A stretch of DNA of 64,000 nt from Pantoea agglomerans (GTDB lineage Bacteria; Pseudomonadota; Gammaproteobacteria; Enterobacterales; Enterobacteriaceae): the NCBI RefSeq assembly GCF_020149765.1, contig NZ_CP083809.1, positions 3,596,001-3,660,000 on the forward strand. The letters run 5' to 3'. Every line of letters begins with the position of its first letter. Positions within the stretch are counted from its first letter, which is position 1. The notes beneath the pieces were generated by a model that saw only the letters and a list, made by a program, of their open reading frames with translations, was not told where the DNA came from and searched no databases. The position numbers and the translations under genes are program-made. Of this stretch, positions 57,269-58,135 are shown one piece after another.

Positions 57269-57303
57269 TTAAAACCCCGCAGCCTTCTGCTGCGGAGTTT
57301 TTC
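57269..57303. terminator. bidirectional terminator downstream of the bacteriocin-like pair
   Basis: AAAACCCCGCAGC pairs with GCTGCGGAGTTTT (one G-T) around TTCT-type loop, with T runs on both strands. Confidence 0.88.
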
Positions 57304-57431: not shown

Positions 57432-57746
57432 TTATACCAGGGCTACACTGTCGCTGGTGCCGTAATTCTTACGGAAGTCGGCGCCATAGGCCGCGACGGC
57501 ATCTCTGCCCCACAGCGCGCCGATAAAGGTTCCGACAACCGGGCCGACAATACAGCCGAAAATCAGGCCGACAACCTGAGCAATAGGGCCGAATACGGCG
57601 CTACGGCTGGCGCTGCCGCCCACTGCCGCGCCAGTCGCCAGGCCTTCAAAGAAGCCCCATGCTGCGCCTTCTGCTGCTTCGCCCACCGAGGAGACGATTG
57701 CACCGCCGCTGACGATTTCAGTTTCAATAACAGATAATTCACGCAT
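57432..57746 (-). CDS. double-glycine-leader, glycine-zipper small protein 1 (bacteriocin-like)
   Basis: A 104-residue protein whose first 15 residues, MRELSVIETEIVSGG, form a double-glycine leader like that of colicin V and other peptides exported by C39-peptidase ABC transporters. The mature part (89 residues) is Gly/Ala-rich. It contains a perfect glycine zipper with Gly at 60, 64, 68, 72, 76 and 80, then RDAVAAYGADFRKNYG. AAGGAA lies 8 bases before the ATG. It is a paralogue of the gene immediately upstream and is probably co-transcribed with it. No exporter or immunity gene is seen nearby. Microcin or two-peptide bacteriocin function is inference. Confidence 0.85.
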   Translation of the reverse strand: MRELSVIETEIVSGGAIVSSVGEAAEGAAWGFFEGLATGAAVGGSASRSAVFGPIAQVVGLIFGCIVGPVVGTFIGALWGRDAVAAYGADFRKNYGTSDSVALV

Positions 57747-57789
57747 GATTAATTTCCTTATATATTAATATGATGACTACTGAAAACTC

Positions 57790-57808
57790 CATTAAAGCCC
57801 CTTTAATG
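57790..57808. other. hairpin between the two bacteriocin-like genes
   Basis: CATTAAAG-CCC-CTTTAATG is a perfect 8-bp inverted repeat in the 89-base spacer. In the minus-strand mRNA it precedes the ribosome site of the second gene by about 30 bases. Confidence 0.55.
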
Positions 57809-57835
57809 AAGAGGGTACTGGCGCAACACTTTCGG

Positions 57836-58135
57836 CTAGCTGGAATAGCGCGTCCTGACATCAGCCGCATAGGCTGCGACCGCCTCTCTGCCAGCCATTG
57901 CGCCCATAATCGCGCCCACGATCGGGCCAATAACACCGCCAAAAATTGCCCCTATGCCCTGAGAGATAATGCCAAATATGGCGCTACGGCTGCCGCTTCC
58001 ACCCACGGTAACACCGGTCAGGAATCCATCCAGCGCGCCCCAGACAATGCCTTCAAGAAAAGCGCTTACCTGATCGGCAGTCGCCGGCGCACCACCGCTT
58101 ACGATGCTGAGCTCGTATTGTTTTAACGTTCTCAT
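57836..58135 (-). CDS. double-glycine-leader, glycine-zipper small protein 2 (bacteriocin-like)
   Basis: A 99-residue protein with the leader MRTLKQYELSIVSGG, 15 residues ending in Gly-Gly, and an 84-residue Gly/Ala-rich mature part. A perfect glycine zipper has Gly at 62, 66, 70, 74, 78 and 82, followed by REAVAAYAADVRTRY. GAAGGTGA lies before ATG 58135; a GTG three codons earlier overlaps that ribosome site. It aligns with protein 1 along the mature region (VGGSxSRSAxFG, then the zipper, then AVAAY). Two adjacent paralogues suggest a two-component toxin resembling the Caulobacter Cdz glycine-zipper bacteriocins; other roles are possible. Confidence 0.85.
   Translation of the reverse strand: MRTLKQYELSIVSGGAPATADQVSAFLEGIVWGALDGFLTGVTVGGSGSRSAIFGIISQGIGAIFGGVIGPIVGAIMGAMAGREAVAAYAADVRTRYSS

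What the first reader, a model, noticed from the sequence alone, without database searches (positions are those of the whole stretch)
57432..58135. Paralogous pair of double-glycine-leader, glycine-zipper proteins: candidate two-peptide bacteriocin
Seen in sequence: two adjacent same-strand genes encode proteins of 104 and 99 residues with 15-residue leaders ending Val-Ser-Gly-Gly. Each mature part has exactly six glycines at 4-residue spacing (60-80 and 62-82), then AVAAY. Known: double-glycine leaders are cut by C39-peptidase ABC exporters, and the Caulobacter CdzC/CdzD contact-dependent bacteriocin consists of two such glycine-zipper proteins. Inference: this is an enterobacterial two-peptide, membrane-active bacteriocin.
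Basis: partly seen in the sequence, partly recalled or inferred. Interest (0 to 1): 0.9.

Follow-up and report, generated by a model that had tools for sequence, protein, structure and literature searches.

The report
Orphan glycine-zipper bacteriocin-like protein pair
Two neighbouring genes in a Pantoea genome encode small proteins built like contact-killing bacteriocins, but this strain lacks the kind of exporter that sister species carry next to hair-like pilus genes.

Summary
In detail: A (57432-57746, 104 aa) and B (57836-58135, 99 aa), minus strand, 53% identical, with 15-residue VSGG leaders and six-glycine GxxxG runs. Both are Pfam DUF5862 and meet the four sequence criteria published for Cdz-like toxins. 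The genus is Pantoea; the pair is syntenic in P. alfalfae and Ca. P. gossypiicola.

This genome (4.84 Mb, 5 contigs, 100% complete) has no C39 peptidase, and no clear immunity gene adjoins the pair. In the six Pantoea genomes with above-cut-off DUF5862 and C39, the only C39 exporter lies in a pilus-linked cluster (a named plasmid in two): pilin, chaperone, usher, adhesin, TolC, MFP, PCAT, Eag-like DcrB protein, mostly with GG-leader peptides. Pair alleles diverge between two sister species whose flanks do not, which suits an exchanged antagonism factor.

Best reading: bacteriocin-like cargo, exported in trans by that machine in relatives, stranded in this isolate. Cleavage, killing and two-peptide action are untested; A-type genes also occur alone. 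Fimbriae near Cdz-like loci were noted in 2017; the Eag-like partner, trans supply and allele exchange were not found in three named searches.

The parts
57836..58135 (-). gene B: 99-aa double-glycine-leader, glycine-zipper protein, DUF5862; first gene of the pair
   Evidence: (PF19180 42.0 bits, cut-off 33.3)
57432..57746 (-). gene A: 104-aa double-glycine-leader, glycine-zipper protein, DUF5862; second gene, 89 bp after B
   Evidence: (PF19180 47.6 bits, cut-off 33.3)
58091..58135 (-). leader of B (15 residues, ends VSGG)
57702..57746 (-). leader of A (15 residues, ends VSGG); DNA from before the start codon into the leader (57703-57769) is 76% identical to the start of the 73-aa plasmid cargo gene of G199
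   Evidence: (last row, E 5.6e-4)
57890..57952 (-). B residues 62-82: two GxxxGxxxG zippers around a central Gly-Pro
   Evidence: Gly-Pro invariant in the 8 rows of A2
57507..57569 (-). A residues 60-80: two GxxxGxxxG zippers around a central Gly-Pro
57787..57811 (-). stem-loop between B and A (11 pairs); both arms can be read in G199 and G215 with different loops; possible attenuator or processing site
   Evidence: consensus scan; alignment, by eye
57271..57301 (-). intrinsic-terminator-like hairpin (13 pairs) downstream of A
   Evidence: consensus scan; 6 such sites found, 2.1 expected

Best explanation
A and B are a pair of Cdz-like (class II microcin-type) bacteriocin precursors of the DUF5862 family. 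In sister Pantoea the 15-residue leader would be recognised and cut after Gly-Gly by the only C39-peptidase ABC exporter in the cell, which sits in a pilus-linked cluster (a named plasmid in two of six genomes) with its own TolC, membrane-fusion protein and an Eag-like DcrB protein that could shield the hydrophobic zipper helices before export. The mature part, two glycine-zipper segments joined by a Gly-Pro turn with a short polar tail, would then insert into the membrane of a touching relative. In the window's strain the exporter is absent, so the pair is probably made, if at all, without being exported. Shown: sequence anatomy, constraint, synteny, absence of C39 in this genome, presence of one pilus-linked exporter in six sister genomes, a pair that is far more diverged between two close species than its flanks. 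Inferred: export in trans, cleavage, chaperoning, pilus-assisted contact and killing.
For: Both proteins match PF19180 above its cut-off and meet all four Cdz-like sequence criteria. In the family sample 11 of 12 genomes with a DUF5862 match also have C39, against 74 of 186 without (Fisher p 0.0005); some of the weak matches lie beside an exporter themselves, which builds in part of this, and above the cut-off it is 7 of 8 against 78 of 190 (p 0.02). In Pantoea, 6 of 8 genomes with DUF5862 above cut-off have C39; each has exactly one C39 match and all six are of the pilus-linked exporter clade with a usher, against 9 of the other 53 genomes, 8 exporter-bearing genomes being untyped (p 0.002; 0.044 if all 8 are counted as that clade). 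Exporter-adjacent cargo has the same kind of leader, and leader DNA is shared with gene A. Between G199 and G215 nine flanking genes have dS 0.08-0.27 but the pair 0.63-0.81; the divergent tract runs from the mature part of B to the end of A; the A and B trees group the window with G215. At the argH-prx locus G199 and G255 show flanks 0.19-0.50, pair 1.09-1.45. The DcrB-like protein's solved relatives are SciW Eag chaperones.
Against: No C39 in this genome. No clear immunity gene beside the pair or in the exporter cluster. No solved relative and no confident fold (mean pLDDT 59.3). Within Pantoea the association with any C39 exporter is not significant (9 of 11 vs 25 of 50, p 0.09; 6 of 8 vs 28 of 53, p 0.28), and genomes share ancestry. 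Outside Pantoea the strong DUF5862 genomes G060, G086, G143 and G162 have exporters with no usher in the fetched stretches, so the pilus link is not general for this cargo. A without B exists. Two of nine flanking genes (EthD-like 0.58, MalG-like 0.45) are about as close between the window and G215 as the pair (0.56-0.57), so that part of the exchange argument is weak; G202 against G206 shows little contrast between pair and flanks.
Confidence: 0.5

Rival explanations
1. Non-toxic secreted surface proteins: the GG-leader glycine-zipper proteins coat the pilus or biofilm matrix, like the EbfG proteins of Synechococcus that use a GG motif and promote biofilm.
For: Exporters of this cargo type sit beside a chaperone-usher operon in 18 of 22 clade loci; no clear immunity gene was found; precedent of GG-motif biofilm proteins (PMC4997328, start of abstract seen in the listing).
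Against: The strong divergence of the pair between close species is more typical of antagonism factors (recall); sequence features match Cdz-like toxins.
Confidence: 0.2
2. A relic: the strain lost the exporter and the pair is decaying, with no present role.
For: No C39 in G000, exporter locus not found. In G206, the other C39-less Pantoea genome with DUF5862, the second gene of its pair is cut to 59 aa; B is broken in Ca. P. deserta, which does have an exporter.
Against: Both window ORFs are intact, with pairwise dN/dS 0.13-0.18 against G215 and 0.16 against G199; leaders, inter-gene stem and terminator-like site are present.
Confidence: 0.2
3. The pair is exported in this strain by another transporter, for example the LapB-like type I exporter encoded at G000:C2:725937, or a housekeeping peptidase and ABC pair.
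For: L186 holds a 726-aa ABC exporter protein with an N-terminal extension and a downstream membrane-fusion-like protein (names by inspection).
Against: PF03412 matches nothing in G000, the PCAT match to this protein starts only at residue 170, and I see no catalytic Cys-type motif in its N-terminal part (by eye), so Gly-Gly cleavage is not expected.
Confidence: 0.08

Closest known systems
CdzC/CdzD contact-dependent bacteriocin of Caulobacter crescentus and the 'Cdz-like' set of PMC5380434
   Same: Two small adjacent GG-leader proteins with glycine zippers and a short polar C-terminus; type I export; the paper reports that many Cdz-like regions include fimbrial genes and names Erwinia sp. among carriers.
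   Different: Here no exporter or clear immunity gene is beside the pair, and no C39 exporter is in the genome; the DUF5862 profile does not ring in the Caulobacter vibrioides control genome (whether that strain holds cdz was not checked); no killing shown.
Class II microcins (MccV, E492 group and candidates from Pantoea and Erwinia, PMC13174018)
   Same: Leader of the MREL...E...VSGG kind; PCAT, MFP and TolC export route in relatives.
   Different: MccV and E492 models match far below cut-off; no separate C-terminal uptake domain and no siderophore-type tail visible (by eye); PMC13174018's main text does not hold the words fimbria, usher or pilus (term search).
EbfG biofilm proteins of Synechococcus elongatus
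   Same: Small secreted proteins with a GG secretion motif; biofilm role (abstract start). That their exporter is of the C39 type is recalled.
   Different: Not compared by sequence here.
T6SS Eag chaperones (SciW, EagT6)
   Same: The DcrB/DUF1795 protein after the plasmid PCAT matches SciW (6xrb, E 1.8e-7) and PF08786.
   Different: It lies in a type I exporter operon; its role as a chaperone here is inference, and the T6SS role of Eag proteins is recalled.

Membership tests
Pfam PF19180 (DUF5862) | profile score above the curated cut-off of 33.3 bits | tested here: met
   47.6 and 42.0 bits
Cdz-like proteins (criteria of PMC5380434) | 60-151 residues | tested here: met
   104 and 99 aa
Cdz-like proteins (criteria of PMC5380434) | leader ending G[G/A/S] | tested here: met
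   VSGG at residues 12-15 of both
Cdz-like proteins (criteria of PMC5380434) | one or two glycine zippers flanked, not interrupted, by proline or charged residue | tested here: met
   GxxxGxxxG - P - xxGxxxGxxxG then R-D/E; read as two zippers around the proline
Cdz-like proteins (criteria of PMC5380434) | short polar or charged C-terminus | tested here: met
   RDAVAAYGADFRKNYGTSDSVALV and REAVAAYAADVRTRYSS
Cdz-like systems | CdzAB-type exporter within about 10 kb | tested here: not met
   no C39 exporter anywhere in the genome
Cdz systems | small membrane immunity protein (CdzI) in the locus | tested here: inconclusive
   flanking ORFs on the pair's strand are of 24-45 aa with no counterpart visible in the G199/G215 alignment (by eye); an immunity gene elsewhere cannot be excluded
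Cdz systems | contact-dependent killing needing both proteins | not testable with these tools
   A-type genes without a detectable B exist, which argues against an obligate pair
Class II microcins | double-glycine leader | tested here: met
Class II microcins | PCAT in the genome | tested here: not met
   no PF03412 match in G000; met in G199, G201, G202, G210, G215, G255
Class II microcins | match to a microcin profile (MccV PF17508; E492 NF051486) | tested here: not met
   MccV 10.7 (A) and 13.3 (B) bits against 27; E492 18.4 bits (B only) against 50
Class II microcins | antibacterial activity | not testable with these tools
   bench work needed
Two-peptide bacteriocin | both genes conserved together as distinct orthologues | tested here: inconclusive
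   A and B are distinct and syntenic in three species (the B group has 100/99 support, the A rows are not shown as one clade), but A occurs without B in at least three loci and B is broken in one

The most novel reading that the evidence does not exclude
Pantoea splits a contact-antagonism system in two: one plasmid carries a combined pilus plus C39 exporter machine with an Eag-like chaperone and its own glycine-zipper cargo, while chromosomes carry exchangeable banks of further cargo pairs at fixed loci (here, and argH-prx), swapped between species and armed only when the plasmid is present. The window's strain is an unarmed carrier.
Probability: 0.3. Interest if true: 0.75.

Novelty: new variant of a known kind. 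Interest (0 to 1): 0.52.

Why it matters
If right, it ties a family of unknown function (DUF5862; no paper in the held library names it) to interbacterial antagonism in plant-associated bacteria. It also offers a testable case of toxin cargo encoded apart from its exporter, and suggests that an Eag-type chaperone fold, known to me (recall) from T6SS effectors with transmembrane segments, serves a type I exporter of glycine-zipper proteins.

Tried and rejected
Ordinary lipoprotein or membrane glycine-zipper protein (Gly-zipper_Omp, YMGG): these profile matches are below cut-off. Anti-phage defence: no PADLOC match at E up to 1. Plasmid-borne copies of B: no match in the plasmid collection at E 0.01. 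Fold evidence: profile search of solved structures gave two hits at E 0.39 and 0.6, taken as chance; the AlphaFold model is helical but of low confidence (pLDDT 59.3), so no fold search was run. A claim of relaxed selection on the window's branch was dropped: with flanking genes as control, the G000 branch ratio of the pair does not differ from the flanks (p 0.25), and pair and flanks seem to have different trees. The A comparisons with G210 (dN/dS 0.62-0.88) come from comparing codons without aligning an indel and are not used. The Clostridiaceae match L117 (42% over 49 residues) was set aside as likely chance. The Proteus mirabilis contact-killing paper PMC8386478 (passages only) does not use the words fimbria, type I secretion or gene cluster, and helped no further.

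Full report
OBSERVATION. A (57432-57746) has 104 residues, B (57836-58135) 99, with 89 bp between them; B comes first in transcription. They are 53% identical. Both have a 15-residue leader ending VSGG and a run of six glycines at 4-residue spacing (A 60-80, B 62-82) with a Gly-Pro in the middle, invariant in 8 aligned relatives, so it reads as two zippers with a turn. Each mature part has 16 glycines; runs of six or more arose in 78 and 132 of 100,000 shuffles. The leader pattern occurs in the window only at these two genes, and never in 100 shuffles. A terminator-like hairpin follows A, and a stem lies between the genes. The other ORFs on this strand in the flanks are of 24-45 aa; none is a clear immunity gene.

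FAMILY. Both match Pfam DUF5862 (PF19180) above the cut-off; MccV and E492-microcin models match far below theirs. No paper in the held library names DUF5862. Profile search of solved structures gave two hits at E 0.39 and 0.6. A structure prediction on a 20-row alignment is helical but weak (pLDDT 59.3).

WHERE IT IS. The pair is syntenic in G199 and G215, between a GST/EthD-like gene pair and a YncE-like gene (names by inspection, not from a call). In P. anthophila, Erwinia typographi and IMG/VR contig L118 an A-type gene stands without a B that the leader search could find; in Ca. P. deserta B is broken. Related pairs occur at other loci, for example between argH and a peroxiredoxin gene (names by inspection) in G199, G202, G255 and, with the second gene truncated, G206. 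In a 20-row tree the three B rows form a group (100/99); within A and within B the window groups with G215 (98/99 and 97/91).

EXPORTER. G000 (4,844,324 bases, 5 contigs, 100% complete) has no C39 peptidase (repeated). Searching it with a plasmid PCAT gives only matches starting at residue 169 or later, that is, beyond the peptidase part. DNA of the exporter locus of G199 and of the neighbouring pPag1 stretch finds only short scattered matches at 65-82% identity, so neither the locus nor that plasmid stretch seems present; a plasmid lost in culture or in assembly cannot be excluded. In the family sample, 12 of 198 genomes have a DUF5862 match (8 above cut-off). Of the 12, 11 have C39, against 74 of the other 186 (p 0.0005); four of the 12 (G002, G046, G130, G142) have only weak matches, each a few kb from a C39 match, which builds in part of this. 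Above the cut-off it is 7 of 8 against 78 of 190 (p 0.02). In Pantoea, 11 of 61 have a match (8 above cut-off); 9 of 11 have C39 against 25 of 50 (p 0.09), or 6 of 8 against 28 of 53 above cut-off (p 0.28). G000 and G206 are the exceptions.

THE MACHINE IN SISTER SPECIES. The six above-cut-off Pantoea genomes with C39 have one C39 match each, in a cluster with chaperone, usher, TolC, MFP, PCAT and a DcrB protein; pilin, adhesin and a response regulator were read in G199 and G201. In five of the six the strict leader search also found GG-leader peptides in the fetched stretch; none in G255's L099. Pfam confirms the parts for G199. The contigs of G199 and G202 match named plasmids; the other four are contigs of 121-224 kb. 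In P. vagans C9-1 the cluster is on pPag1, annotated in the same order; a Burkholderia ubonensis plasmid has PCAT, MFP, TolC, two GG-leader peptides and a chaperone-usher operon. Among 72 exporter loci examined, 22 have a PCAT at least 60% identical to one of the two Pantoea queries. A usher lies in the fetched stretch in 18 of 22 (one partial at the edge) against 7 of 50 of the others (two partial at the edge); a DcrB protein in 14 of 22 (13 directly after the PCAT; L171's is 8 kb away) against 0 of 50. The queries came from this clade, many of the 22 are closely related Pantoea, two (L181, L182) were picked from a plasmid search, and some stretches end at contig ends (L128), so these numbers lean towards the clade. 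By clade, the exporter is of this type in 6 of 8 above-cut-off Pantoea genomes and in 9 of the other 53, with 8 exporter-bearing genomes not fetched and the rest typed by their strongest matches (p 0.002, or 0.044 in the worst case). The DcrB-like protein is closest in the PDB to SciW Eag chaperones (E 1.8e-7). That Eag proteins shield transmembrane segments of T6SS effectors is recalled. Against a general rule: G060, G086, G143 and G162 carry strong DUF5862 genes and their fetched exporters have no usher nearby.

ALLELE EXCHANGE. Nine flanking genes of G199 and G215 differ by dS 0.08-0.27, the pair by 0.63-0.81. Between the window and G215 the pair differs by 0.56-0.57; seven of nine flanks are more distant (0.76-1.19), but two are not or hardly (EthD-like 0.58, MalG-like 0.45). 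In the alignment, G199 and G215 are 87-100% identical outside, and 69-89% from the mature part of B to the end of A. At the argH-prx locus G199 and G255 show flanks at 0.19-0.50 and the pair at 1.09-1.45; G202 against G206 shows little such contrast (flanks 0.11-0.33, pair 0.36-0.55). dN/dS of the window-locus pair is 0.08-0.18. So the genes are kept under constraint while alleles seem to be exchanged, which is common for antagonism factors (recall); this rests on few genomes.

LITERATURE. The Cdz paper (PMC5380434; section 13 read, other passages by term) describes Cdz-like proteins by four sequence criteria, all met here, reports them particularly in gamma-proteobacteria and names Erwinia sp., and notes fimbrial genes in many such regions. 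The pilus link is therefore not new in general. PMC9746304 (passages) found microcin hits in 40.0% of Erwiniaceae species. PMC13174018 (abstract and parts 1, 3, 4 and 5 of 8 read) reports many Pantoea, Erwinia and Xanthomonas class II microcin candidates, mostly described as lying near exporter genes, and screened 23; its supplementary lists were not read, so I cannot say whether DUF5862 members are among them. Searches for microcin + chaperone-usher + C39, Pantoea + pPag1 + fimbrial + type I secretion and DUF1795 + bacteriocin + type I secretion + glycine zipper listed no paper that I recognised, from titles and abstract starts, as describing the Eag-like partner, cargo supplied in trans or allele exchange; the last search held 228 papers of which 10 were listed, and all cover one library only.

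VERDICT. The pair is best read as Cdz-like bacteriocin cargo without its exporter in this strain, most likely served in relatives by the pilus-linked exporter. Export in trans, cleavage and killing remain inference.

Noticed in passing
L094:12110-12544 and 13 other loci: A DcrB/DUF1795 protein, closest to SciW Eag chaperones, lies in 14 of 22 stretches with this PCAT clade (directly after the PCAT in 13) and in 0 of 50 others.
   Followed up: partly
L147, L148, L149, L158, L173: More distant C39 exporters (40-42% identical) also lie within several kb of a usher and chaperone (ushers 31-33% identical) with GG-leader proteins of 68-129 aa: perhaps a second, separate pilus-exporter linkage.
   Followed up: no
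L089:4260-4979, between argH and the pair: G202 has two further GG-leader proteins (109 aa each) beside its DUF5862 pair: the argH-prx interval looks like a cargo hotspot.
   Followed up: partly
L012, L018, L020: Clusters of two to four unlike GG-leader proteins in a row, some ending with a 'DFFRP...W' type protein that by eye resembles the 73-aa plasmid cargo.
   Followed up: no
L118 and L120 (IMG/VR contigs): An A-type gene lies near integrase-like and repressor-like genes (by inspection); in L120 it is cut to 33 residues. Cargo genes may ride beside prophage attachment sites.
   Followed up: no
L186:985-3165 (G000:C2:725937): The window's genome has a LapB-like (by inspection) type I ABC exporter; PF03412 matches nothing in this genome.
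   Followed up: partly
window 57787-57811: Stem-loop between B and A whose arms persist by eye in G199 and G215 although the loop differs.
   Followed up: no
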